20,657 nt of DNA from a virus, in the IMG/VR virus record IMGVR_UViG_3300036851_000518, positions 1 through 20,657 of that record, one strand, 5' to 3'. Positions 1 through 20,503 of the stretch are shown here, one piece after another. The notes beneath the pieces are model-generated. The model did not search any database, had not been told where the DNA came from, and was given only the letters and a program-made list of their open reading frames with translations. Each line of letters opens with the position of its first letter. Positions within the stretch are counted from its first letter, which is position 1. The position numbers were made by a program, and so were the translations under genes.

Positions 1-1530
1 GTGCGCCTCGTAGACCACGTTCACGTAGTCCATGAACGTCGTCTCGTCGCGAGTGTGCAGCATCACGCGTGCGCGCCCCCACGGGTCGGGCTTCGCCTCC
101 GTGATGTTGACGAGCTTGTGGCCCCTGCGCACGGCTTCCTCCGCTGCCTGCTGGAGCGTCGTCATTTCGCCTCCAGTCTCGGCCTCCTCGCCCTCCTCGG
201 GGATGATCCCCTTGTCCACCGCGACCTCGATCACGCGGTCGATGAACCAGCGGAAGATGCCCTCGATGATCTCGATGCGTGTCTCGACCATCTTGAGCAC
301 CGGAAGCTCCATCGCCGTCGCCGTCGCCAGGCCCGGCCCGTCGCCCGCGCCCAGATAGTGCTGCGGCCAGCGTGACGCCGCCGAGAACTGCGAGCGCAGG
401 TTCGCCGCGTCCATCTGCGCGTTGCCCGCGCCGGAGTCGATCCGCAGCGGTTCGTGGCGGACGCCCTCGTTCGAGGTGATGATCGCCGGGCCACGCGGCC
501 CGTACTGAAGCCCCACGCCCTCGTTTATCACCTCGTCCGGGGAGACGGGGAAGTTCCCGGCAAGCGGGCTCGTGCGGCTGACCGCCTTCGCCGCCAGGCG
601 CGCGACCTGCGACGGAGTGCCGGTGACGCGGCGCTCCATCACGAACGCCGCTGCCGCCTTCATCACGTCCACGCGCGACTTCATAAAGTCGTTGTAGGCG
701 GTCGCCCAGCGCAGCACCCTGATCCACTCGGGGACGCCGAAGATCATCTCGGTGATGCGGTTGATCGCGACGTGGTAGACGCGCCCCTCGCCCATGTCGT
801 CGGGCTTCGGGCGGTAGTCGCCGAGCGAGCGGCCCTCGTCTTCCTCCACGTCGCGGACGTTGTGCCAGTGTTCGTAGTACCGCTTCTTCGGCTTCGCGAC
901 CTCGGCGGTATCGACCTTCCAGCGGTGCTCCTGGAAGTCCCACTCGCGCTTGACCTCGGTCGCGACGTACCACAGCACGCGGTGACGGTTCTCCGGGTCG
1001 GTGATCGCTTCGCTGACGGTCAGGTAGTCGAGCGTCGAGAGCTTCACCTTGCCGTCGTCGCCGTCGTCGAACAGCAGGAACAGCAGGTTCGACTGGAGCG
1101 ACAGGTCGGTGTTCATCGCGATCTGCGACGTGAAGTCGGTCAGGATGCGGCGGTTGTCGGGATCGTCCCACGCCTCGTCGATCTGCTTCTGGGAGAGCTT
1201 GTCCTTGAACCGTGGCCGGGGCACACCGCGCCCGAGCACAAAGTCGTTCATCAGCGCGACCGCGCCACCGATCAGCGGGTCGTGAATCCAGGCGTGGATC
1301 GCCCGCTTCGCCATCACCTTCCGCGACTCGTACTTGACCTCGTGCTCGCGCCCTGAGAAGTGGTCGAGCACCGTCCAGCCGAGCAGGTCGAGCATCCGCT
1401 GTTGGGCGGTGTAGTCCTGCGCGGTCGCTTCGAGAAGCTCGACCTCCGACTGCGACCGAACCGCGAGCCCGGTGCGCGCTTCGACGAGGTCGAGCGCCTG
1501 GCCTAGGAGTCCTCCGGTCGGCCTACGCAT
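1..1530 (-). CDS. Phage portal protein (3' end beyond window)
   Basis: Portal proteins form the dodecameric ring at one capsid vertex through which DNA is packaged and ejected. The frame is open from the ATG at 1530 to the left edge, giving 510 visible residues, so the C-terminus is missing. Evidence is family resemblance: an N-terminal region with the pattern AWIHDPLIGGAVALMNDFVL (about residues 80-99), and a late segment around residues 385-420 with HYLGAGD followed by GLATATAMELPVLKMVE, typical of portal proteins just before the long stem helix (IIEGIFRWFIDRVIE). The start overlaps the stop of the upstream Ig-like protein by 8 bp (ATGCGTAG), supporting this ATG and co-translation. It lies downstream of TerL in the same orientation, though nine small genes separate them, which is unusual. 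The call rests on pattern recognition, not a database search. Confidence 0.85.
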   Translation of the reverse strand, partial: MRRPTGGLLGQALDLVEARTGLAVRSQSEVELLEATAQDYTAQQRMLDLLGWTVLDHFSGREHEVKYESRKVMAKRAIHAWIHDPLIGGAVALMNDFVLGRGVPRPRFKDKLSQKQIDEAWDDPDNRRILTDFTSQIAMNTDLSLQSNLLFLLFDDGDDGKVKLSTLDYLTVSEAITDPENRHRVLWYVATEVKREWDFQEHRWKVDTAEVAKPKKRYYEHWHNVRDVEEDEGRSLGDYRPKPDDMGEGRVYHVAINRITEMIFGVPEWIRVLRWATAYNDFMKSRVDVMKAAAAFVMERRVTGTPSQVARLAAKAVSRTSPLAGNFPVSPDEVINEGVGLQYGPRGPAIITSNEGVRHEPLRIDSGAGNAQMDAANLRSQFSAASRWPQHYLGAGDGPGLATATAMELPVLKMVETRIEIIEGIFRWFIDRVIEVAVDKGIIPEEGEEAETGGEMTTLQQAAEEAVRRGHKLVNITEAKPDPWGRARVMLHTRDETTFMDYVNVVYEAH

Positions 1531-3063: not shown

Positions 3064-3729
3064 CTAGCGGGAGAACAGAGCGCCGACACGCTGTAGCTCC
3101 TCGGCAACCATGCCCACCGACACGTCCTTGCTCGCCGCGAGCATCCTCACCGCCTCACGCCGGAGCTTCGCCGGGACGTGGTCGAGCATCAGCACGCCGT
3201 CCAGATGGTCGATCTCGTGCTGCGCCACTCGGGCGAGCAGCCCACCGAGATTTATCTTCGTGTCCTCGCCGTCGGGCGGGTACTGGCCGGTGACGACGAT
3301 CTCGTTGTGACGCTCGACCGGCACGTTGATCCCCGGCAGAGACAGACAGCCCTCCATGTCCACGCTCGTCTCCTCGGAGCGCATCACGATCTCGGGGTTC
3401 GCGAGGATCATCACCTGGCCGGACGCGAGGTCGTTCACGTTGCGGATCGCAACGACGCGCTGGAGCACTCCGACCTGGTTCGCCGCGAGCCCGTAGCCCT
3501 GGAACGCGACGACGGTGTCGGCCATGAAGCGGGAGAACGCGTCGAGCCCGGAGTCGAACTCCTCGACGGGCTTCGCCTTCATCCGCAGCGGCGGAGCGGG
3601 GAAGACGCGCACCGGATTCGGCGGAACCGGCCTCGTCACCGAGTAGAGCACGCTGCTGGGCAGCTCGGGGCGCTCCTCCTGCACCTCCGGCACCGCCACG
3701 AGGTGCCTGCGTTTCCGGCTCTTGCTCAC
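3064..3729 (-). CDS. def: Peptide deformylase
   Basis: Peptide deformylase removes the N-formyl group from nascent bacterial proteins, using a metal held by one Cys and two His. All three family motifs are present and intact: GYGLAANQVG (78-87), EGCLSLPG (126-133) and QHEIDHLDG (170-178). The metal ligands are C128, H171 and H175 and the catalytic Glu is E172. At 221 residues it is somewhat longer than the typical 160-200 because of a basic, proline-rich N-terminal extension of about 40 residues (MSKSRKRRHLV, then RPVPPNPVRVF). The C-terminus after residue 180 is helical and full length. The start is GTG at 3729. It sits among virion/late genes rather than beside a formyltransferase gene, so it is a phage accessory gene. 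Assignment is secure from the motifs. Confidence 0.96.
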   Translation of the reverse strand: MSKSRKRRHLVAVPEVQEERPELPSSVLYSVTRPVPPNPVRVFPAPPLRMKAKPVEEFDSGLDAFSRFMADTVVAFQGYGLAANQVGVLQRVVAIRNVNDLASGQVMILANPEIVMRSEETSVDMEGCLSLPGINVPVERHNEIVVTGQYPPDGEDTKINLGGLLARVAQHEIDHLDGVLMLDHVPAKLRREAVRMLAASKDVSVGMVAEELQRVGALFSR

Positions 3730-5221: not shown

Positions 5222-7051
5222 CTAGTACCTCGGCCAGTCGTCCTCGTCTGTCAGCGGGCTCCACTCGTCGGGCTCGACACCCGGCGGTTCGGGCGCATCC
5301 TCCGGCCCGCCCCGGTACTCGATGTTCTCGGGCCGGTCGAGGTCTGACCGCTCGAACGTCTGGAGATGCTCGTCGAGCGTCGTCGTCTGCTTGCGGAAGT
5401 ACGACTCGACCTGCGTGCGCATCCACCACAGTTCGGTCGCGATCATGTCGAAGACCTCCGCCATCGCGAAGTGATCCGGGCCGGTCGAGACGTATTCGGT
5501 CGTCACCTCGCCGGTGTCCTCATCCTCCTCGGTGAGCCGCTGCGGCGACTTCATCTCGTTCCGGTAGTTCTCCGGCAGGTTCACAGCGAGATGGTTGTTC
5601 TGGGCTCGGATCATCGAGATCATCGCGTCGATGGACTCGGTGCGCTTCACGCTCGCGGTCTGTAGCTGCTCGTCGGTCGTGAGCACCTGCTTCTGCTGGT
5701 GGCCGGTCAGCGCGACGACGTAGACCCTGCCGGGGAACGCCGCCTGGAACGCGCGTGCGACGCGCCCGTCCGGGAGGTGGTCGATGGCTGCCATGTTCAC
5801 CTTGAAGCGCATCATCAGATCGCCCAGCAGCCGGATGAACTGCGCCAGCCGTTTGTCGTCCACCTCCCCCGTCCACAGCATCCGCTTCGTGTTCTCGTCG
5901 ATGTGCTCGCTGATCCGCACGGTCGCGCTGCGCGTGGACGCCATGTCGATCCCGGCGGTCACCGGGTTGCGGCCCGAGTAGCCGTTCACCATCTCGAAGC
6001 CGCCTCCGGCTGAGATCGCAGCGTCGAGGTCGGCATCGGTCAGCCGCCCACCCTCCTCCTGGAACTCGATCCCGAGGTCTTTGTTGTAGAACCGCTGCAC
6101 CTGGTAGATGCGCTTTTCCTTCGAGTGGTCGATGATCTTCTGGAGGTTCGTCCACGGCACGATCAGACGCGGCGTGTGGTAACCACGCGGGCGCTGCACC
6201 TCGGTCACCTGCGGCACCCACTCCCCCTTTGCCACGTCGAGCGGCTTGCGACAGTGGGAGCAGACAATCAGCACCCGCTCCTGATCGACGTTCTTCCAGA
6301 AGTCGATCTCCTGCCAGCCCACCCGACACCGCTTACACTTCACCATCCAGACGCGCTTGTCGGTGCCCTCATAGATCGCCGAGATGCCGAACTGCGGGAT
6401 CGTCGGCGTCCCGAGTCGCCGCATCATCCCGTGTGGCGAGCCCGTGATCCGCTGCTCGGCGTCGGGAATGTTCGCCTGGACGATCCGGTCGTACTCGTCG
6501 AAGACGATCACGTCGGCATCGACAGAGTCCAACTCGTCCTTGTTCTGCGAGCCTCGGAAGTTCGCGAACCCGAGCCCGACCTGCTTCAAGCCCTTGTTGT
6601 TCGTGTACCCGTACGGCACCCGCGAGCGCAGGTAGGGGACGCGCTCGATCAGCGGCTTGATCCGCTGGTCGCTGAACTCGTTGAGTTGCTTCGCCTTCGG
6701 GAAGACGTAGAGGCTCGTCCATCCCTTCGTGTCAGGGAAAAACAGCCCCCACCTGACGGCCCACGCCGACGCGCCCGCCTGCGTCGCCTTCTTCACGCAC
6801 CCTTCGGGCTCATAGGTGTAGTCGTCGTCGTACCACTCGCGCTGGAACGGGAACCGCTCGAAGTCGAGAGTCTTCGTCTTCGGCTCGGGGATGCGCAGCG
6901 CCCACGGCAGGAACGGCACGCGCAGGTTCTCCGTCTCGCGAATGTCGATCTGGAGCTTCTCGGTGAGTTGCTCGATGGGCGAGCCCTCGTCCGCTGCTAC
7001 CTCACGACGAACACCGGCCCATCCGCGAGCCTGCGAGGCGAACTGCACCAC
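5222..7051 (-). CDS. terL: Terminase large subunit, GpA type
   Basis: The ATPase-nuclease that cuts and packages phage DNA into the prohead. 609 residues. ATPase domain: a degenerate Walker A at 86-95 (VKKATQAGAS, the Q-x-G form seen in the lambda gpA family rather than GKS/T) and Walker B at 181-187 (VIVFDEY). A zinc-ribbon insertion follows with C239, C242, C264 and C267 (CKRC and CSHC), also typical of GpA-type terminases. The RNase H-like nuclease domain begins near 366 with AGIDMAST (D369), continues with MAAIDHLPDG near 427, and has a late DHFAMAEVFDMIA near 535. GTG start at 7051, 1 bp after the TerS stop. The C-terminal 60 residues are acidic and Pro-rich. GpA-type terminases usually make cohesive ends, relevant to the Ku gene here. 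Confidence 0.95.
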   Translation of the reverse strand: MVQFASQARGWAGVRREVAADEGSPIEQLTEKLQIDIRETENLRVPFLPWALRIPEPKTKTLDFERFPFQREWYDDDYTYEPEGCVKKATQAGASAWAVRWGLFFPDTKGWTSLYVFPKAKQLNEFSDQRIKPLIERVPYLRSRVPYGYTNNKGLKQVGLGFANFRGSQNKDELDSVDADVIVFDEYDRIVQANIPDAEQRITGSPHGMMRRLGTPTIPQFGISAIYEGTDKRVWMVKCKRCRVGWQEIDFWKNVDQERVLIVCSHCRKPLDVAKGEWVPQVTEVQRPRGYHTPRLIVPWTNLQKIIDHSKEKRIYQVQRFYNKDLGIEFQEEGGRLTDADLDAAISAGGGFEMVNGYSGRNPVTAGIDMASTRSATVRISEHIDENTKRMLWTGEVDDKRLAQFIRLLGDLMMRFKVNMAAIDHLPDGRVARAFQAAFPGRVYVVALTGHQQKQVLTTDEQLQTASVKRTESIDAMISMIRAQNNHLAVNLPENYRNEMKSPQRLTEEDEDTGEVTTEYVSTGPDHFAMAEVFDMIATELWWMRTQVESYFRKQTTTLDEHLQTFERSDLDRPENIEYRGGPEDAPEPPGVEPDEWSPLTDEDDWPRY

Positions 7052-7052
7052 G

Positions 7053-7664
7053 CTAGTTGTCTGACGGCGCGAGCAGGGCGAGCACCTCGCGCTTCGCCTC
7101 GCCGGGCTCGATCTCGCCCTTCTCGATCCGGTCGAGCACGAACACGACGCGCTGCACCACGGTGCGCACCTCGAACACGTGCTTGAGCGTGCCGAGATTC
7201 TTCGGAAGCATGTCGGCCTCCTGGAGCAGCTTCACCTTCGCCTGACGCGTGTCGAGCATCTTGCCCTCGAACCCGAGTTCGGCATTGAGGTTGTTCTGCT
7301 TCACCGCACGCTCGCGCCCTTCGCGCAACCGCTCCAACTGCGCTTCTAGTCCCTGGAGCGTCTCCCATAGCTCGCCAGTGGCATCGACCTGGTCGATGCT
7401 CTCAGCGTTGTTCTCGCGCCAGCGCGCCAGGATGCGACGGGCGGTGCTCTCGTCGATCCCATGCTTGGTCGCGATACCCGTCCACGACATGTCGCCGACG
7501 AGTCTGTCGCGCACGACCTCCGTGTCACGCTGGACGGTCTGCGCCGCCGTCAGCCGCTTCGTCTTCGGCTTGGCCCTCGGCTTCTTCTTCGGCGTCCGCC
7601 TCGGACGTGTCTGGGCCTTCGCCTGCTCCAGGCTCTTAGCCTTGCGCCCAGATTTCCCAGCCAC
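7053..7664 (-). CDS. terS: Terminase small subunit
   Basis: 203 residues directly upstream of TerL. It opens with a very basic tail (residues 1-38, rich in Lys, Arg and Pro), then a helix-turn-helix at about 40-82 (LTAAQTVQRDTEVVRDRLVG then WTGIATKHGIDESTARRILA), then a long predicted coiled coil at about 100-150 (LEAQLERLREGRERAVKQNN). This DNA-recognition HTH plus oligomerisation helix layout is that of terminase small subunits, which bind the packaging site and stimulate TerL. GTG start at 7664; stop is 1 bp before the TerL start. Sequence identity of small subunits is always weak, so the call rests on architecture plus position. Confidence 0.85.
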   Translation of the reverse strand: MAGKSGRKAKSLEQAKAQTRPRRTPKKKPRAKPKTKRLTAAQTVQRDTEVVRDRLVGDMSWTGIATKHGIDESTARRILARWRENNAESIDQVDATGELWETLQGLEAQLERLREGRERAVKQNNLNAELGFEGKMLDTRQAKVKLLQEADMLPKNLGTLKHVFEVRTVVQRVVFVLDRIEKGEIEPGEAKREVLALLAPSDN

Positions 7665-9660: not shown

Positions 9661-10116
9661 CTACGCCGTCGCCAGCGCACCCACCTTCTCGGAGGCAGTC
9701 TCGCGAGAAGCTCGTCTCCCGAGCGCCTTCATGCGCTCGTAGAAAATCACCTGACGCTCGTTGTACGCGTCGTCCTTCCTGCCGCTCGAACCCTTCTGCG
9801 CTTGGAACTCGACTGCGAGCCTCGCGCGCCGAATCACTCGCTCGGTTCGCAGATACGGGAGCACCGCTTCGAGGAACGCGCCAGCCTGCCGTGAGCACGC
9901 CGTCCACCGATGGAGGGGCGTCCGTCCCGGCATATTCCGACGCTCCATCCCGAGCGCCCCGGAGAAGTGCGCTTGCATGAACGCCACCGGCTCGGGATCG
10001 GTCATGGACACCATCACGCGCAGGAAGATGCCGTTCTTGTGGCTGTTTCGGAAGATGCCGATGCTTCCTTCGCCCTCGAACAGACCGGCGGCGTATGCGA
10101 GATCGGCCTCGGTCAC
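9661..10116 (-). CDS. LAGLIDADG homing endonuclease (single motif), after Ku
   Basis: 151 residues. The single LAGLIDADG-type motif YAAGLFEGEGSIGI lies at residues 8-21, followed by an alpha/beta domain with beta strands (FLRVMVSMTD) and a helix set ending in a charged C-terminus. Single-motif proteins act as homodimers that cut long DNA sites and copy their own gene into cut alleles. The GTG start at 10116 overlaps the Ku stop as GTGA, so it is co-transcribed and coupled to Ku. Its codons contain more A/T than neighbours, consistent with a mobile gene. The stop is 1 bp from the stop of the convergent plus-strand gene. I cannot tell from this one allele whether it still cuts. Confidence 0.85.
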   Translation of the reverse strand: MTEADLAYAAGLFEGEGSIGIFRNSHKNGIFLRVMVSMTDPEPVAFMQAHFSGALGMERRNMPGRTPLHRWTACSRQAGAFLEAVLPYLRTERVIRRARLAVEFQAQKGSSGRKDDAYNERQVIFYERMKALGRRASRETASEKVGALATA

Positions 10117-11114
10117 TTGGTCGCCACCGCCCGCTTCCGGGTAGTCGCTCGGGAAGCCTTCTTCGGGGTCTTGTGCTTGCGCCCCGACTTCTTCGTGGCC
10201 TTCGCCGCCTGGAGGCTCTCGCGCAGCATCCGCTCCAGCAGCGTCTCGTCGCGCTCCGTCACGCCGCCGCCGACCTTGCGCACGTCGGCGTCTACTTCGG
10301 TGAGCGGCTGGCCCATCTTCGCCTTCTCGACCAGGTCGGCCTTCATGTTCGCCTGGAGATCGCCGACCCCGTCGAGCACCGCCGCGTCGGTCGAGAGCGC
10401 CTCGACCAGCTTGACGGCCATCTCGACTTCCTTCTCCGTCGGCTCGCCGCGCGGGTCGGAGAGAGAAGCTGCGCCCTCGCGCACCTGCGCCCACTCCTCG
10501 GCGAACGCGAGTGTAGAGACGATCACGCCGCCGTGCCGGGCGTAGATCAGCGCGAGGTGGACACGCGACTTCGGGCACAGGAGTGCGACCCCAGCGGTGC
10601 CGGTCTGCTCCAGCGCGACCCGCAGCAGGTTCAGCGCCTTGAGCCCCGCGCCCTTGTTAGGCGTCAGGTAGTAGCCGTTCTTCACGCGCTCCCACGGCAC
10701 GTCGTCGAGCGGGACGAAGCCCTGGATCGTCAGTTCGTCGAGCTTCGTCAGCGCGTTGATCTTCTCGATCTCGTGCTTGTCGATGGCGTAGAAAGTGTCG
10801 CCCTCCCAGACGCCGTGCTTGATCTCGTGCTCCTCGAACACCTCGCCGGTGACGGTGTCGCGGTAGCGGGTGCGCTTGCCGTTCTGTACCTCCTCGACCG
10901 GCACGCCAAGCTCCTCGGCGACGGCCTTCGCGTCCTCGGGCGTCTCGACGACTGACTCCTCCTCGATCCCGGTGCCGACGAACTTCTCGAACCGGTTGCC
11001 CTTCGGGCTCGCCGTCGAGAACGACGGCAGCTTCTTCTCGGACGCGGTCTTGAGCGCCACGGGAACGCTGAGCGTCGCGACGTTCAGTACGAGTGTGCGA
11101 ATGGTGCTTGCCAC
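10113..11114 (-). CDS. ku: Ku-family DNA end-binding protein
   Basis: Bacterial Ku homodimers ring broken DNA ends and recruit LigD for non-homologous end joining. 333 residues. The opening VLNVATLSVPVALKTASE matches the Ku start (usual form: ...GLVSIPVKLY.A.E). The core follows in order: EVFEEHEIKHGVWEGDTFYA (91-110), then FVPLDDVPWERVKNGYYLTP (133-152), then KGAGLKALNLLRVALEQTG (154-172) and HGGVIVSTLAFAEEW (194-208). The tail from about 303 is Lys/Arg-rich, as in many bacterial Ku proteins. A short acidic insertion at 50-75 is less usual. GTG start at 11114 with AGGAGG 7 bases upstream, directly behind promoter element B. Phage Ku genes are known from mycobacteriophages Omega and Corndog. 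No ligase gene is visible here. Confidence 0.92.
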   Translation of the reverse strand: MASTIRTLVLNVATLSVPVALKTASEKKLPSFSTASPKGNRFEKFVGTGIEEESVVETPEDAKAVAEELGVPVEEVQNGKRTRYRDTVTGEVFEEHEIKHGVWEGDTFYAIDKHEIEKINALTKLDELTIQGFVPLDDVPWERVKNGYYLTPNKGAGLKALNLLRVALEQTGTAGVALLCPKSRVHLALIYARHGGVIVSTLAFAEEWAQVREGAASLSDPRGEPTEKEVEMAVKLVEALSTDAAVLDGVGDLQANMKADLVEKAKMGQPLTEVDADVRKVGGGVTERDETLLERMLRESLQAAKATKKSGRKHKTPKKASRATTRKRAVATK

Positions 11115-11131
11115 GGACTACCTCCTGAGTG

Positions 11132-11618: not shown

Positions 11619-13514
11619 TCAGCCTCCCAGCGGAAAGAGAACGTCGGTCGCCACGACCATCCCGGTCGAGGGGTACTCGATCACTCCGAGCGTGCGCAGA
11701 CGCCCGAGGATGTTCGCGAACGTGCCGCCGCCCTTCTCGGTCACGGTGTAGCCCGAGCGTGCGCCTAGCTCGATCCGACTCAGCGGCTCGTCGTACACGT
11801 CGATCAGGTTGCGCAGCACGCGCCGCTCCGGCTCGCTGAGCCTCGCCAGCACGGCTTCCTGCACCGCCTCGTTCGTCGGTTCGATACCGGAATCGTTCGC
11901 GAGCGAGCGCCCGGCTTCCGTCAGGGCCAGCGAGCCTGGCGACGGATAGTCCAGCAGCGGGGGCCAGTCGTACCTGCCCTCGCGGTTAGCCAGCGCACCG
12001 AGGATGTTCGCGAACGTCCCGCCGCCCTTCTTCGACGTGCGGTAGCCAGCGATGAAACCGACCTCGATCCGGCCCGGCGTCCTGATCCCGAGCGTCTCGA
12101 ACCAGCGGACGGCGTCGAGTACGCGCTGCATCGGCCCGGTCAGGTTGCCGCTGGGGCTCGCCCCGCCTGACGCGCTCGTGTCAGGAGCGGCCTCCGGCGC
12201 GGGCCGTCGGCGGGCGGCGTCTCCTACTGCACCACCCGGCTCCGGCTGTCGCCGCGTCGTGGTACCCAGACGCGGAGGATCGGCGGGGCGAGTCCTTGTC
12301 GGCGGACGGATCGTGTCCGTCGACACCTGATCCTTCGATGCGTCAACGATTCGGTTCAGCGCCGCGTTGAGGTCGTTGACGGGCCGAGCGAACTCGCCGA
12401 GAAGTTCCTGTCCGGCGATGATCGCGTCGGACAGCTTGTGGGCGAGCCCGGTCAGTTCCATCAGGTGCTCGGCGCTCAGCACCGGCATCTCGACGACCTT
12501 CTCGACCTCGACGACCTTCTCGACCTCCTCCGCAGGACGCTGCTCTAGCTCGCGCTTGAGCCGTGCGATCTCAGCCCGCAGTTCCTTCGGATCGTCGGCC
12601 TTGGCCTTCTCGACCGCTGTTTTCATCTGCTCGCCGAGCGCGTCCAGGTCGAGTTCCTTCCGGGCGGTCGGCTCGACGCGCACCTCGCCCGCCTTCGGCG
12701 TCGCGTAGGAGTCGAACGTCTTGATCCGCCGGATCGCGACCTTCTCCAGAACCCCGCGCAGCGGCGACCACACCCAGCCGGTGCCGGTCGGCAGCGAGTC
12801 GAGCGTCCTGATAACGCCCTGCTCGTCCTCCTCGCCCTTGACGAGAATCCAGTCCCGCACCGCCTCACGGGCGCGCGGCGACAGCATCCGCATCACGATC
12901 ATCGTCTCGATCAGGTCGAGCACCGCCTTGTTGAGCGACTGCGTCCGCTGGGTCGTGAGCACGACGCCGAGCCCGCGCGAGCGTCCGAGCCCGCACGCAT
13001 CCTCCATCGCACCCATCAGCTTCGCGGAGTCGCCCTTGAAGCCCCCGCGCGGCGTCTGCGGCGCGTAGAAGTGGGCCTCGTCGATCACGAGCACAGTCGT
13101 CGAACGTGCGCGCGCCTTGCGGTCGTAGAGCCGTTCGAGGAACTCGGCGGCGAACTTGACCGTTCCGGCCTTCGAGAGATCGGAGAAGTCGAGCACGAAC
13201 GAGTGGCCCGACTCGACGACGAGGTCGGCGATCATCACGCCAGCGTGCGGTTCGAGTGGAACGTCGCCGTGCGGGCCTCCGAGCACGTAGATGCCTAGCC
13301 CTCCCCGCGCCTGACCATCACGGTTCGAGCGCAGCCCCCAATAGACGCCGGTGCGGTCGAAGACGACCGACTGGACGCCGAGCGGGAATGTCTCCTCGAC
13401 GATCACCGCGCCGGTCGAGGACTTGCCTGCACCACGCGTCGCGACGACAGCGGTCGCCTCGGTGATTACGTCGAGCGGGAGCGAGAACCCGCGCGCGAGG
13501 TGAAGCTCGCTCAC
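11619..13514 (-). CDS. HerA/FtsK-like ATPase with duplicated C-terminal winged helices
   Basis: 631 residues from GTG 13514, chosen because it overlaps the upstream stop as GTGA; the 12-codon longer form starting at 13550 has no better support. ATPase domain (1-about 290): Walker A ATRGAGKSST (26-35), Walker B VLVIDEAH (141-148), and TTQRTQS (187-193), the polar motif of the HerA/FtsK family. A coiled-coil/linker region with RAEIARLKRELEQ and a repeated VEKVVE (about 312-338) follows, then a Pro/Arg/Thr-rich disordered stretch (about 400-450). The end holds two related modules, each with KGGGTFANILG (496-506 and 594-604), probably wHTH DNA-binding domains. HerA enzymes translocate DNA ends, usually with the nuclease NurA; none is visible. 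Neighbours are SSB and Ku. Confidence 0.9.
   Translation of the reverse strand: MSELHLARGFSLPLDVITEATAVVATRGAGKSSTGAVIVEETFPLGVQSVVFDRTGVYWGLRSNRDGQARGGLGIYVLGGPHGDVPLEPHAGVMIADLVVESGHSFVLDFSDLSKAGTVKFAAEFLERLYDRKARARSTTVLVIDEAHFYAPQTPRGGFKGDSAKLMGAMEDACGLGRSRGLGVVLTTQRTQSLNKAVLDLIETMIVMRMLSPRAREAVRDWILVKGEEDEQGVIRTLDSLPTGTGWVWSPLRGVLEKVAIRRIKTFDSYATPKAGEVRVEPTARKELDLDALGEQMKTAVEKAKADDPKELRAEIARLKRELEQRPAEEVEKVVEVEKVVEMPVLSAEHLMELTGLAHKLSDAIIAGQELLGEFARPVNDLNAALNRIVDASKDQVSTDTIRPPTRTRPADPPRLGTTTRRQPEPGGAVGDAARRRPAPEAAPDTSASGGASPSGNLTGPMQRVLDAVRWFETLGIRTPGRIEVGFIAGYRTSKKGGGTFANILGALANREGRYDWPPLLDYPSPGSLALTEAGRSLANDSGIEPTNEAVQEAVLARLSEPERRVLRNLIDVYDEPLSRIELGARSGYTVTEKGGGTFANILGRLRTLGVIEYPSTGMVVATDVLFPLGG
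11704..11737. repeat. 34-bp direct repeat, copy 1 (inside ATPase gene)
   Basis: A 34-bp segment beginning CCGAGGATGTTCGCGAACGT and ending GCCGCCGCCCTTCT on the plus strand. It is identical at 33 of 34 positions to 11998-12031 (one G/C difference). It encodes the KGGGTFANILG core of the second C-terminal module on the minus strand. Confidence 0.9.
11998..12031. repeat. 34-bp direct repeat, copy 2 (inside ATPase gene)
   Basis: Matches 11704-11737 at 33 of 34 bases, 294 bp away, and encodes the equivalent KGGGTFANILG core of the first C-terminal module. Flanking sequence in the two modules is much more diverged than this core. Confidence 0.9.
12489..12524. repeat. Two perfect 18-bp tandem repeats in ATPase linker
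   Basis: The unit CTCGACGACCTTCTCGAC occurs twice in succession without a mismatch (12489-12506 and 12507-12524). On the minus strand it encodes VEKVVE twice in the coiled-coil region of the HerA-like ATPase. An identical tandem duplication suggests recent slippage. Confidence 0.9.
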
Positions 13515-13753
13515 GACAGGGCGGCTTCGCCCTTCCGAGTCAGCGACCACTTCGCCGGACGACCCTCACGCTTCGTCAGTCCGCGCGCATGAAGCCGCTT
13601 GAGCGTCGCGTGCAGCGCGTCGTAGCCGTAGTACCACGAGCCGAGCCGTGACAGCGTGGCGTCGAGCGCCTGCGTCGTGACCGGCCCGTCTTCCCGGTTC
13701 AGCGCGCGCAACACGTCGCGCTGCTTGATCGTGATTGCACGTTCCTTTGCCAT
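13511..13753 (-). CDS. 80-aa winged-helix protein (internal start)
   Basis: This frame is identical to the C-terminal 80 residues of the HNH frame. The ATG at 13753 is preceded by GGGAGG at 5 bases, so independent translation is likely. The sequence reads MAKERAITIKQRDVLRALNR, then PVTTQALDATL, then YGYDALHATLKRLHARGLTK and a final EGRPAKWSLTRKGEAALS, a typical winged helix-turn-helix with wing. It precedes the HerA-like ATPase (GTGA overlap). The likeliest history is an independent small regulator gene, with the HNH gene inserted upstream without a stop. Confidence 0.7.
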   Translation of the reverse strand: MAKERAITIKQRDVLRALNREDGPVTTQALDATLSRLGSWYYGYDALHATLKRLHARGLTKREGRPAKWSLTRKGEAALS

Positions 13754-14257
13754 CAGTCCTCCCTTGCGTAGCTCAGCGTGGTGGAGCGGACACCGCCATC
13801 TAACTTCCAGCGGCTTCGAGTAGTCGTCGTGGTGAGCGTGAACCCGCCGCGTCGCACCACAGACTTCGCACGGTTGCCGAACAAGCTCGCCGCGTCGTAG
13901 CGCACGCGCGACCGCGCTGTGTGCCCGTGCCGCCTCGGGATGCTCCGCCCGCCACCGCCTCGTATTCTTCGCGAGGCGTTGCAGAACACGAGGCTGCCTA
14001 CTTCGGCGACGATCACGAGCACGAACCTTCTCTTTGTCCCGCCGCGCAACCATCGCGCGACGCTCCTCGACAGACATAGCCTGGTATCGAGCGCGAGCAC
14101 TCTCGGCGGCTTGAGCACGTCTCGTCGCTGCCCGCTTCTCGCGTTCTTCGGCAGAGAGCGAGGGCTTCGGTGGCCTCGGGACGTAGCTAGCCCTTGCACG
14201 CAGTCGTCGCTTGCACTTGGGACACGTGCCGCAGAGACAGGACGGCTTGCGAGGCAC
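13511..14257 (-). CDS. HNH endonuclease read in frame into a winged-helix domain
   Basis: 248 residues. N-terminal CLCGTCPKCKRR (about 7-18) is a zinc-binding motif common at the start of phage HNH proteins. A long basic helical region follows (about 30-110), then the HNH/zinc core: QPCEVCGATRRVHAHHDDYS, then KPLEVRWRCPLHHAEL, ending near residue 166. HNH proteins are often homing-type nickases. The frame then continues without a stop into an 80-aa winged-helix protein whose own ATG (13753) has a good ribosome site. GTG start at 14257, weak leader. The base composition of the HNH part is less GC-rich than neighbours, consistent with insertion. Whether the full fusion is made, the two separate proteins, or both, is unknown. 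Confidence 0.75.
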   Translation of the reverse strand: MPRKPSCLCGTCPKCKRRLRARASYVPRPPKPSLSAEEREKRAATRRAQAAESARARYQAMSVEERRAMVARRDKEKVRARDRRRSRQPRVLQRLAKNTRRWRAEHPEAARAHSAVARALRRGELVRQPCEVCGATRRVHAHHDDYSKPLEVRWRCPLHHAELRKGGLMAKERAITIKQRDVLRALNREDGPVTTQALDATLSRLGSWYYGYDALHATLKRLHARGLTKREGRPAKWSLTRKGEAALS

Positions 14258-14312: not shown

Positions 14313-14759
14313 TCAAAACGGAATGTCGTCGTCGCCCGCGTAGGGCTCGTCCGCTCCGGCGGTGCTGCGGTAGGGCTCGGGCTCGGATGGTTCCTGGAAC
14401 TGGCGGCTGCCGCCGCTGTCGCCGTCCTGACGCGGGGTGAGGAACTGGACGCTGTCGGCAACGATCTCGATTGCCTGTCGCTTCGAGCCGTCCTGTGCTT
14501 CCCACTCGCGCCAGTCGAGCCTGCCGGTGATCCCGACGCGGCGTCCTTTCGAGAGGAACCGGGACGCGTTCTCGCCCTGTGCCCCCCAGACGATCACGTC
14601 GAAGTAGTTGGGCTTGTCGCCCCACGTGTCGCCGGTCTTCGTTCGGCTGTTCACGGCGACGCGCATCTTCAACACGGGCGTTCCCGCCGGTGTGTGGCGA
14701 AGCTCGGGGTCGCGAGTCAGGTTGCCGATCAGCGCGACGACGTTCATGTCTGCTGGCAT
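14313..14759 (-). CDS. ssb: Single-stranded DNA-binding protein
   Basis: SSB coats single-stranded DNA during replication and recombination and recruits partners through its tail. 148 residues. The OB fold covers about 5-105: NVVALIGNLTRDPELRHTPA, then VLKMRVAVNSRTKTGDTWG, then YFDVIVWGAQGENASRFL and KGRRVGITGRLDWREWE. A flexible Gln/Pro/Ser-rich linker follows and the C-terminus is the acidic tip DDDIPF, the standard protein-interaction signal. ATG at 14759 with GGGAGG about 5 bases upstream. A palindrome and possible promoter precede it. It is the first gene of the SSB-HNH-HerA block. Confidence 0.96.
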   Translation of the reverse strand: MPADMNVVALIGNLTRDPELRHTPAGTPVLKMRVAVNSRTKTGDTWGDKPNYFDVIVWGAQGENASRFLSKGRRVGITGRLDWREWEAQDGSKRQAIEIVADSVQFLTPRQDGDSGGSRQFQEPSEPEPYRSTAGADEPYAGDDDIPF

Positions 14760-15849: not shown

Positions 15850-16014
15850 CTACGCCGCGTCGTCGTCGCCCGCGTCGCCCGCGTCGCCCGCGTCGCCCGC
15901 GTCGCCCGCGTCGCCCGCGTCGGGTGCGTCGCCCCCATCGCCCGAATCGCCGGTGCCGCCTTCCTCCTCGCCGCCTCCGCTCGTCTCGTACTCGATGAAA
16001 TCGCTGCCGCGCAT
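15850..16014 (-). CDS. Small acidic protein with Gly-Asp-Ala repeat tail
   Basis: 54 residues from ATG 16014, which has GGAGGAGG about 6-7 bases upstream. After MRGSDFIEYETS come a Gly/Glu run and a repeated GDA tail (about 35-50: DAGDAGDAGDAGDAG) ending DDDAA. The repeat comes from a 9-bp DNA unit. Strongly acidic and disordered; no cysteines or membrane segment. The same DNA read on the plus strand gives only arginine/proline repeats and is not coding. Confidence 0.6.
   Translation of the reverse strand: MRGSDFIEYETSGGGEEEGGTGDSGDGGDAPDAGDAGDAGDAGDAGDAGDDDAA
15868..15926. repeat. 9-bp tandem repeat (GTCGCCCGC units)
   Basis: About six consecutive units of GTCGCCCGC, with degenerate flanking units. 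The period is a multiple of three, so copy-number changes keep the reading frame of the acidic protein. It is a coding minisatellite, not a CRISPR (no spacers). Confidence 0.85.
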
Positions 16015-16070
16015 CTGCCCTCCTCCCCGTCGGGTCGTCGTTTGCCGGAACATACCGCCCGGCGCTAACC

Positions 16071-19394: not shown

Positions 19395-19835
19395 CTACGC
19401 GGCGCGGTCGAGCGAGTAGGCGCGCGTCGCGACGAGCCGCTTCCGCAACTCTGCCATGCGGCTCCAGTCGGCGCCACGGCGCAGCGTCGCCCACTCCGCG
19501 ACACCCTCGCGCCAGACCTCGAAGTCTCTGCGCTTCCGGCTGCGCAGCGGGTGCTCGTCGAGAATCATCACGAGCGCACGCACATCGGCGCGACGCTCGA
19601 CTTCCCAAACAACCGTGTCGTTGCCGCCAAGCCCGTTGCGCGACCGCCAGTGGACGCGTCCTAGACCCGTGCGCGCTGCGATCTCGCGCACGATTTCCTC
19701 GTCGTCGTCTCGGAGACGCAGCGAGAAGTGACAGGCGTACGTGACGCCGTACGGGCGATTCCTCGCCTTGATTTGGAAGCAACCCTCGCCGTCGATCAGC
19801 CCAGCGAGCCAGTGGAGGAAAGCGTCGTCCTCCAT
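19395..19835 (-). CDS. LAGLIDADG homing endonuclease (single motif), after RusA
   Basis: 146 residues. One LAGLIDADG motif, WLAGLIDGEGCFQI, at residues 9-22, then a beta-rich segment (YGVTYACHFSLRLRDDDEEI), GLGRVHWRSRNGLG and a helical, basic end (LRKRLVATRAYSL). As a single-motif protein it should dimerise. ATG 19835 is 5 bp after the RusA stop, and the gene is followed by a hairpin. It is not obviously similar to the other single-motif endonuclease (after Ku) beyond the motif and general plan. A free-standing homing gene; activity not known. Confidence 0.85.
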   Translation of the reverse strand: MEDDAFLHWLAGLIDGEGCFQIKARNRPYGVTYACHFSLRLRDDDEEIVREIAARTGLGRVHWRSRNGLGGNDTVVWEVERRADVRALVMILDEHPLRSRKRRDFEVWREGVAEWATLRRGADWSRMAELRKRLVATRAYSLDRAA

Positions 19836-19840
19836 CGGCC

Positions 19841-20503
19841 CTACGCGACGAGCAGTTCCAACTGCTCCGCGTGCTCCTCGGGGCGCGGAAGCTCCAGCAT
19901 GTCGAAGGCGACGAGATCGCCCACGGTCTGCGTCTCCAGCAGCGTGATCGTTACCTCGACGTGCTCGTCCTCCCACCGGTGGCAGTACCGCTTGCCGATG
20001 TGGTGGGTGACGATCAGCGAGTCGTCGGTGTAGACGACGCCCTTGAGCGCGTCCTCGACCGCGCGGGCGAGCTTGAGCCCGTCGGGGATGCTGCCCGGCG
20101 CTGCCGGTGCGCTGTCCTTCAACTGGCGCTCGTTCTTCCCGGTGCCGTAGTGGGCCTTCGGACGCTGTCGCACGAACACGAAGGTGGCCTCGATTAGACC
20201 ATCGAAGACCTCGCGACCGCCCATCGCGAGCCGGGCCGTGTAGCCGACGGCGTCGCGCCACGCGTCCAGCTTCGGATTGTCCTCGCGCGTGTTGACCAGG
20301 ATCGGGCACTCGCAGGCGATCTTCTGCCACGAGCCGTCCGGCCCCGGCATCCCGTCGCGGGCGACGGAACGGTCGCGGTTCGGGCAGCCCTTCCGGTGCC
20401 GCCTGACCGGCGTGCCGTCCTTGTACGTCGGCACGACAGGGTTCTTCGAGCCCTGCGTGGCGGGCTTGCCCGCGACCGTGAATGCGACCGTGCGCTCGTC
20501 CAT
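19841..20503 (-). CDS. rusA: RusA-type Holliday junction resolvase
   Basis: RusA resolves Holliday junctions and branched intermediates as a dimeric endonuclease. 220 residues; the family core is clear: NPVVPTYKDGTPV at the start, NPKLDAWRDAVGYTARLA (76-93), FVFVRQRPKAHYGTGKNE (108-125), and the active-site region PDGLKLARAVEDALKG followed by VVYTDDSLIV (140-165). D141 and D160 match catalytic Asp positions; where E. coli RusA has PDxD, this protein has PDGL (Leu143), a variant I recall from actinobacterial members. ATG at 20503. Longer than E. coli RusA (120 aa) because of an insertion at 30-70 with several Cys and a C-terminal tail. Confidence 0.9.
   Translation of the reverse strand: MDERTVAFTVAGKPATQGSKNPVVPTYKDGTPVRRHRKGCPNRDRSVARDGMPGPDGSWQKIACECPILVNTREDNPKLDAWRDAVGYTARLAMGGREVFDGLIEATFVFVRQRPKAHYGTGKNERQLKDSAPAAPGSIPDGLKLARAVEDALKGVVYTDDSLIVTHHIGKRYCHRWEDEHVEVTITLLETQTVGDLVAFDMLELPRPEEHAEQLELLVA

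What the first reader, a model, noticed from the sequence alone, without database searches (positions are those of the whole stretch)
10113..11114. A phage-encoded Ku protein, without a visible ligase
The sequence shows a full-length bacterial-type Ku core plus basic tail, on a genome with TerS/TerL/portal. Ku is rare in phages but known in mycobacteriophages Omega and Corndog, where it is proposed to help circularise short cohesive ends by recruiting host LigD. With the GpA-type TerL here (a cos-cutting family), a similar circularisation or end-protection role is plausible. No LigD-like gene is present in the window.
Basis: partly seen in the sequence, partly recalled or inferred. Interest (0 to 1): 0.85.

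Follow-up and report, generated by a model that had tools for sequence, protein, structure and literature searches.

The report
Highly divergent phage DNA-end clamp (Ku)
A soil-type bacteriophage, probably of Thermoleophilia bacteria, carries its own version of Ku, the ring protein that grips broken DNA ends; it is far more divergent than the few Ku proteins known from phages, is kept next to the DNA-packaging genes, and has no ligase of its own in the sequence available, so it most likely works with the host's repair ligase or simply caps the phage's DNA ends.

Summary
The Ku gene is real: window 10113-11114, minus strand, GTG start with an AGGAGG site, 333 aa, Pfam Ku E 1.7e-20, predicted Ku fold (Z about 16 to B. 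subtilis and M. tuberculosis Ku-DNA structures). The window and one 68-kb sister virus (TerL 67%, Ku 64% identical) keep Ku at the same place between SSB and TerS/TerL/portal, at core-gene conservation. Neither record has a DNA ligase. Likely hosts, inferred from SSB only (Thermoleophilia), widely encode Ku and LigD. The TerL is closest to those of SPO1 and Seuss, whose records carry terminal repeats. It is barely related to lambda gpA and not detectably to Omega- or Corndog-type terminases. Ku is also less rare than stated: two further scans found 30 and 60 other Ku-bearing viral contigs. What is new is this Ku itself: an isolated branch (26% identity or less to all others sampled), below the curated Ku_bact cut-off that Omega- and Corndog-type Ku pass, with an insert of about 45 residues, loss of regulatory residues (D250, L13), but retention of the LigD-arm motif. 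Best guess: an end clamp that recruits host LigD; a Gam-like end cap is a close rival. A new variant of a known kind.

The parts
10113..11114 (-). ku gene, 333 aa, GTG start
   Evidence: Pfam PF02735 E 1.7e-20; phrog_4873; AlphaFold2 model pLDDT 78, pTM 0.66, Z 15.9 to 9vnq and 15.5 to 9i91; 64% identical to the sister Ku
11120..11126 (-). AGGAGGT ribosome-binding site of ku
   Evidence: sequence printed
10869..11003 (-). insert of about 45 residues (about res. 38-82; strand plus two short helices) between the segments that in M. tuberculosis Ku carry His35 and Cys48/Cys51 of the bridge
   Evidence: alignments A3 and A8, model secondary structure; shared only with the sister Ku
10179..10250 (-). 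C-terminal helix (res. 289-312) with LLxxxLxxS motif, the minimal C-terminus that in bacterial Ku stimulates LigD ligation
   Evidence: Ser258 (66 of 66) and Leu255 (65 of 66) of the compared sequences kept, Asp250 (59 of 66) replaced by Leu; helix 292-312 in the model
10116..10202 (-). basic C-terminal tail
   Evidence: 15 K/R against 3 D/E in the last 44 residues
9661..10116 (-). LAGLIDADG-type homing endonuclease ORF, start overlapping the ku stop (GTGA); absent after ku in the sister
   Evidence: phrog_5046 E 6e-21
7053..7664 (-). terminase small subunit (HTH protein), 44% identical to the syntenic sister protein
5222..7051 (-). terminase large subunit, SPO1/Seuss-like (phrog_675), GpA_ATPase domain, no GpA_nuclease match
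1..1503 (-). portal protein, cut by the window end
   Evidence: 63% identical to the sister portal (phrog_10963)
14313..14759 (-). single-stranded DNA-binding protein; closest to chromosomal SSBs of Thermoleophilia
19841..20503 (-). RusA Holliday-junction resolvase, conserved in the sister
11619..13550 (-). HerA-like ATPase upstream of ku; not found in the sister, so not a conserved partner

Best explanation
The gene encodes a phage-specialised homodimeric Ku. The ring threads onto double-stranded ends of phage DNA (the injected linear genome or breaks made during infection), shields them from host exonucleases, holds two ends together, and with its C-terminal helix and basic tail brings in the host's LigD, which seals the ends. 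Shown here: it is a Ku by sequence and predicted fold; it is kept as a core gene next to SSB and terminase in two phages; no ligase is encoded in the 20.7 kb plus the 68 kb of the sister; the Leu-Leu...Leu...Ser arm motif is retained; likely hosts have LigD. Inferred: DNA binding, dimerisation, LigD recruitment, host identity and the exact step served (circularisation or break repair). The narrower claim of circularising short cohesive ends is not supported by the terminase.
For: Ku family and fold. Synteny RusA - 623-aa gene - SSB - ku - TerS - TerL - portal with the sister, and Ku identity (63-64%) in the range of TerL (68%), RusA (63%) and SSB (56%). No PF01068 or PF01653 ligase in window or sister. 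C-terminal motif residues equal to M. tuberculosis Leu251, Leu255 and Ser258 kept; this minimal C-terminus is the main C-terminal feature needed to stimulate LigD ligation (PMC9638933). SSB nearest to chromosomal SSB of Gaiellaceae/Solirubrobacterales, a class where 150 of 249 sampled genomes match Ku and 78 of 149 exceed the cut-off for the NHEJ ligase. Precedent: Ku-bearing phages Omega and Corndog use host LigD (Pitcher et al. 2006, as cited in PMC7719229, PMC4351075, PMC3706429).
Against: Closest characterised terminases belong to phages with terminal repeats, which can circularise by recombination and need no end joining (PMC5418689). Several near-invariant Ku residues are lost (Trp5, Gly7, Leu13, Lys226, Asp250 in M. 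tuberculosis numbering), two of them at surfaces that control filament formation and DNA binding. It scores 97.7 bits against the 150-bit cut-off of the Ku_bact equivalog. The host is inferred from one gene (SSB), and both virus records are fragments, so a ligase could lie outside them.
Confidence: 0.48

Rival explanations
1. [quoted passage not shown] Circularisation, if any, is by recombination between terminal repeats.
For: No ligase; terminase kin have terminal repeats; Leu13, needed with Val14 for end-bridging filaments in M. tuberculosis Ku (PMC12658125), is Thr in both phage Kus, and Asp250, whose loss raises DNA affinity about 20-fold (PMC9638933), is Leu: a pattern that fits tighter clamping and altered synapsis. 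Precedent: Mu Gam protects linear ends (PMC1378119) and blocks RecBCD loading (PMC12407980).
Against: The C-terminal arm motif is kept between two phages only 64% identical, unexpected if no ligase partner or other arm function remained; position 14 is still hydrophobic (Leu).
Confidence: 0.33
2. Break repair during infection: Ku helps to reseal double-strand breaks made in phage DNA by host nucleases or by the phage's own homing endonucleases.
For: The window holds three homing-type endonuclease ORFs, one of them overlapping the ku stop codon.
Against: The LAGLIDADG neighbour is absent after ku in the sister, so the link is not conserved; homing normally relies on recombination.
Confidence: 0.1
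3. Packaging-associated role: Ku binds the free end of the concatemer or packaged DNA and assists or regulates the terminase next to which it is encoded.
For: Conserved location between SSB and TerS/TerL in both phages, unlike Omega- and Corndog-type phages, where ku lies far from the terminase genes.
Against: Gene order alone; no interaction evidence.
Confidence: 0.08

Closest known systems
Ku of mycobacteriophages Omega (cluster J) and Corndog (cluster O)
   Same: Phage-borne Ku without a detected ATP-dependent ligase in the phage; basic or extended C-terminus; probable use of host LigD
   Different: About 18-20% identical; those cluster with other actinophage Kus in the tree, the window lineage is a separate deep branch; they pass the Ku_bact cut-off, this one does not; unrelated-type terminase and, for cluster O, 4-base 3' ends (PMC4351075); ku far from terminase there, near it here
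Bacterial Ku with LigD (M. tuberculosis, B. subtilis)
   Same: Core fold (Z about 16), C-terminal Leu/Ser motif, basic tail
   Different: Insert of about 45 residues at the bridge; loss of Trp5, Gly7, Leu13, Lys226, Asp250 and of both metal-site residue sets reported for M. tuberculosis Ku except Glu172 (PMC12658125)
Gam of phage Mu
   Same: Phage protein of the Ku kind that binds DNA ends (literature: PMC1378119)
   Different: Not compared by sequence here; the window protein has the bacterial Ku core and C-terminal arm
Viral contigs with Ku plus their own ATP-dependent ligase (L126, L127, L185, L213)
   Same: Ku on a viral contig
   Different: Those encode a ligase near ku; the window lineage does not, as far as sequenced

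Membership tests
Ku superfamily (Pfam PF02735) | match above the curated gathering score | tested here: met
   74.2 bits against 25
Ku superfamily (Pfam PF02735) | Ku core fold | tested here: met
   model pLDDT 78; best matches all Ku, Z 15.9 (9vnq), 15.5 (9i91), model residues 2-209
Bacterial NHEJ Ku equivalog (NCBIfam TIGR02772) | score above the curated cut-off of 150 bits | tested here: not met
   97.7 bits (sister 94.2); Corndog-type 168.1 and Omega-type 261.6 pass
Bacterial NHEJ Ku | minimal C-terminal motif that stimulates LigD | tested here: inconclusive
   Leu255 and Ser258 equivalents kept, Asp250 equivalent lost
Bacterial NHEJ Ku | homodimeric ring that binds DNA ends and recruits LigD | not testable with these tools
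   needs protein biochemistry
Omega/Corndog-type phage circularisation system | phage Ku without phage ligase, host LigD available | tested here: inconclusive
   no ligase in window or 68-kb sister, but records are fragments and the host is inferred from SSB
Omega/Corndog-type phage circularisation system | short 3' cohesive ends | not testable with these tools
   no reads or complete ends; terminase kinship points elsewhere; no end repeats in the sister record, which is classed linear and may be a fragment
lambda-type cos terminase | lambda gpA-like terminase with GpA_nuclease domain | tested here: not met
   GpA_ATPase only; lambda gpA has both domains; window against lambda gpA E 3e-4 versus 1e-33 for SPO1
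Mu Gam | sequence kinship to Gam | not tested
   compared only through the literature

The most novel reading that the evidence does not exclude
A Ku branch specialised for phage DNA ends in phages with SPO1-type terminases: a clamp freed from the C-terminal autoinhibition and filament-based synapsis of bacterial Ku, with a new bridge insert, that caps or hands over the ends during entry or packaging rather than acting as a classical NHEJ factor.
Probability: 0.17. Interest if true: 0.75.

Novelty: new variant of a known kind. Interest (0 to 1): 0.5.

Why it matters
It shows that phage Ku is not confined to the two mycobacteriophage clusters and is not tied to short cohesive ends: it sits, as a core gene, beside a terminase of the terminal-repeat kind. 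Natural changes at exactly the residues that experiments link to DNA affinity (Asp250) and filament/synapsis (Leu13) in M. tuberculosis Ku make this protein a ready-made test of which Ku functions a virus needs: end protection, synapsis or LigD recruitment.

Tried and rejected
Direct Ku relatives in IMG/VR by single sequence and by the two-row alignment: nothing beyond the sister. TerL in 84,980 species genomes: none, so no prophage or direct host link. A ten-row Ku alignment gave no usable search pattern. HerA-like ATPase as a Ku partner: rejected, because the sister lacks it and the phage that shares it (L003, 78% over the ATPase part) lacks Ku. FtsK neighbours of ku in Omega-type phages suggested a shared pattern, but it is not conserved here. 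MT838252 'Bacteriophage sp.', the only INPHARED hit of the window Ku, looks like a bacterial scaffold (Ku beside a Fpg-like gene) and was not counted as phage. dN/dS: synonymous rates are distorted by about 90% GC at third positions, so only relative protein identity was used. First structure model was poor (pLDDT 61); a deeper alignment fixed that. Terminal repeats at the sister record's ends: none, uninformative because the record may be a fragment. PADLOC gave no hit for Ku.

Full report
Observation. The window is a 20,657-base virus record. The proposed Ku is a 333-aa ORF on the minus strand at exactly 11114-10113, GTG start, preceded by AGGAGGT. It passes the Pfam Ku cut-off (74.2 against 25 bits, E 1.7e-20), hits the PHROG Ku family, and hits only Ku in the PDB sequence search. 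An AlphaFold2 model on 37 aligned sequences (pLDDT 78, pTM 0.66) matches B. subtilis and M. tuberculosis Ku-DNA structures at Z 15.9 and 15.5 over model residues 2-209. Observation confirmed.

Context. All confidently assigned genes run on the minus strand: RusA, a 623-aa gene, SSB, an HNH protein, a HerA-like ATPase, ku, a LAGLIDADG ORF whose GTG overlaps the ku stop, TerS, TerL, peptide deformylase, a weakly matching zinc-peptidase-like protein, and a portal cut by the window end. One relative was found: IMGVR_UViG_3300005937_000014, 68,362 bp. It keeps the order RusA, 623-aa gene, SSB, ku, TerS, TerL and portal. Ku is 63-64% identical, in the range of TerL (68%), RusA (63%) and SSB (56%), so ku is inherited with the core rather than being a recent guest. 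Neither record has an ATP-dependent or NAD-dependent ligase. The sister also encodes an exonuclease-family PD-(D/E)XK protein and a DnaC-like loader.

The terminase does not support cohesive ends. The Pfam GpA_ATPase model also matches the SPO1 and Seuss terminases. In a direct comparison the window TerL matches an SPO1-like phage (7e-40), SPO1 (1e-33), Seuss (4e-27) and a Staphylococcus Twort-type phage (1e-24), lambda gpA only at 3e-4, Corndog-type at 0.24 and Omega-type not at all. The SPO1 record notes a terminal redundancy and the Seuss record 1748-bp terminal repeats; TerL clades tend to follow end type, with exceptions by recombination (PMC5418689). At 25-30% identity this is a pointer, not proof. 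It removes the main argument for transferring the Omega/Corndog model on the basis of terminase type.

Host. The phage SSB is closest (61%) to a Gaiellaceae SSB, which lies beside genes that read as ribosomal-protein genes on a chromosomal contig, followed by other actinobacterial SSBs, many of them Solirubrobacterales. In that class 150 of 249 sampled genomes match Ku and 78 of 149 exceed the curated NHEJ-ligase cut-off, despite many being draft genomes. Host LigD would thus often be available. The host assignment rests on one gene and is inference.

How different this Ku is. In a 67-sequence tree the window and sister Kus form a pair on a stem of 3.24 changes per site, apart from the mycophage Kus, other viral-contig Kus and Thermoleophilia host Kus; the highest identity to any of those is 26%. 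The score for the NCBI Ku_bact equivalog is 97.7 against a cut-off of 150, while Corndog-type and Omega-type Ku pass. An insert of about 45 residues lies between the segments that correspond to His35 and Cys48/Cys51, reported as a bridge metal site in M. tuberculosis Ku (PMC12658125). Against 66 other Kus, the pair keeps Ala23, Phe95, Tyr110, Glu172, Asp213, Leu255 and Ser258, and loses Trp5, Gly7, Leu13 (to Thr), Lys226 (to Ala) and Asp250 (to Leu). Alanine at Asp250 raises M. tuberculosis Ku's DNA affinity about 20-fold (PMC9638933), and L13A/V14A abolishes filaments on DNA (PMC12658125). In apo M. tuberculosis Ku the C-terminal helix covers the filament interface (PMC12658125). Both the helix and that interface are altered here. 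Inference: tighter or differently regulated end binding. The alignment around Asp250 could also be read as a one-residue gap, so this point needs a structure.

Mechanism. Two readings remain. (1) End clamp plus host LigD: retained C-terminal motif, no ligase in the phage, LigD in likely hosts, precedent of Omega and Corndog using host LigD (Pitcher et al. 2006, cited through PMC7719229, PMC4351075, PMC3706429). (2) Gam-like end cap: terminal-repeat-type terminase, changed synapsis and autoinhibition residues, precedent of Mu Gam (PMC1378119; PMC12407980). I put them at 0.48 and 0.33. They are separable in vitro.

Prevalence. Among deposited phages the Ku matches were mycobacteriophages only, apart from one scaffold that looks bacterial. 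In IMG/VR, a Streptomyces-plasmid Ku query found 30 loci and a mixed host/phage alignment 60 loci, overlapping in part and possibly including plasmids, prophage edges or host sequence. A local search found an ATP-dependent ligase in the flanks of three of them (L126, L185, L213), and a family search also found one in the L127 record. So phage-borne Ku is more widespread than the literature suggests; I did not verify the viral status of each contig.

Noticed in passing
window 9661-10116, 19395-19823, 13511-14257 (minus): Three homing-type endonuclease ORFs in 20 kb: two LAGLIDADG-like, one overlapping the ku stop codon, and one HNH fused in frame to a winged-helix gene that stands alone in the sister.
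   Followed up: partly
window 11619-13550 (minus); L003 6456-8210: HerA-like ATPase with repeated winged-helix-like C-terminal parts, 78% identical over the ATPase part to a protein of another virus (IMGVR_UViG_3300036851_000548) that lacks Ku.
   Followed up: partly
L126, L127, L185, L213: Viral contigs (up to 392 kb) with Ku and their own ATP-dependent ligase close by: possible phage-encoded two-component end joining; viral status not verified.
   Followed up: partly
L216, L220, L223: Viral contigs with two neighbouring, dissimilar Ku genes.
   Followed up: no
L004 (MT838252): A GenBank 'Bacteriophage sp.' scaffold that looks like actinobacterial chromosome (Ku beside a Fpg-like glycosylase).
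   Followed up: yes
window 3064-3729 (minus): Peptide deformylase gene (Pfam E 1.6e-40), not found in the syntenic stretch of the sister.
   Followed up: partly
window 15850-16053 (minus); L002 3689-4066: Low-complexity GDA-repeat ORF in the window; at the same place the sister has a collagen-like Gly-Pro repeat protein with a membrane segment.
   Followed up: no
L009 7949-9553 (sister record 60948-62552): 534-aa protein with a zeta-toxin domain, which PHROGs files with minor head proteins.
   Followed up: no
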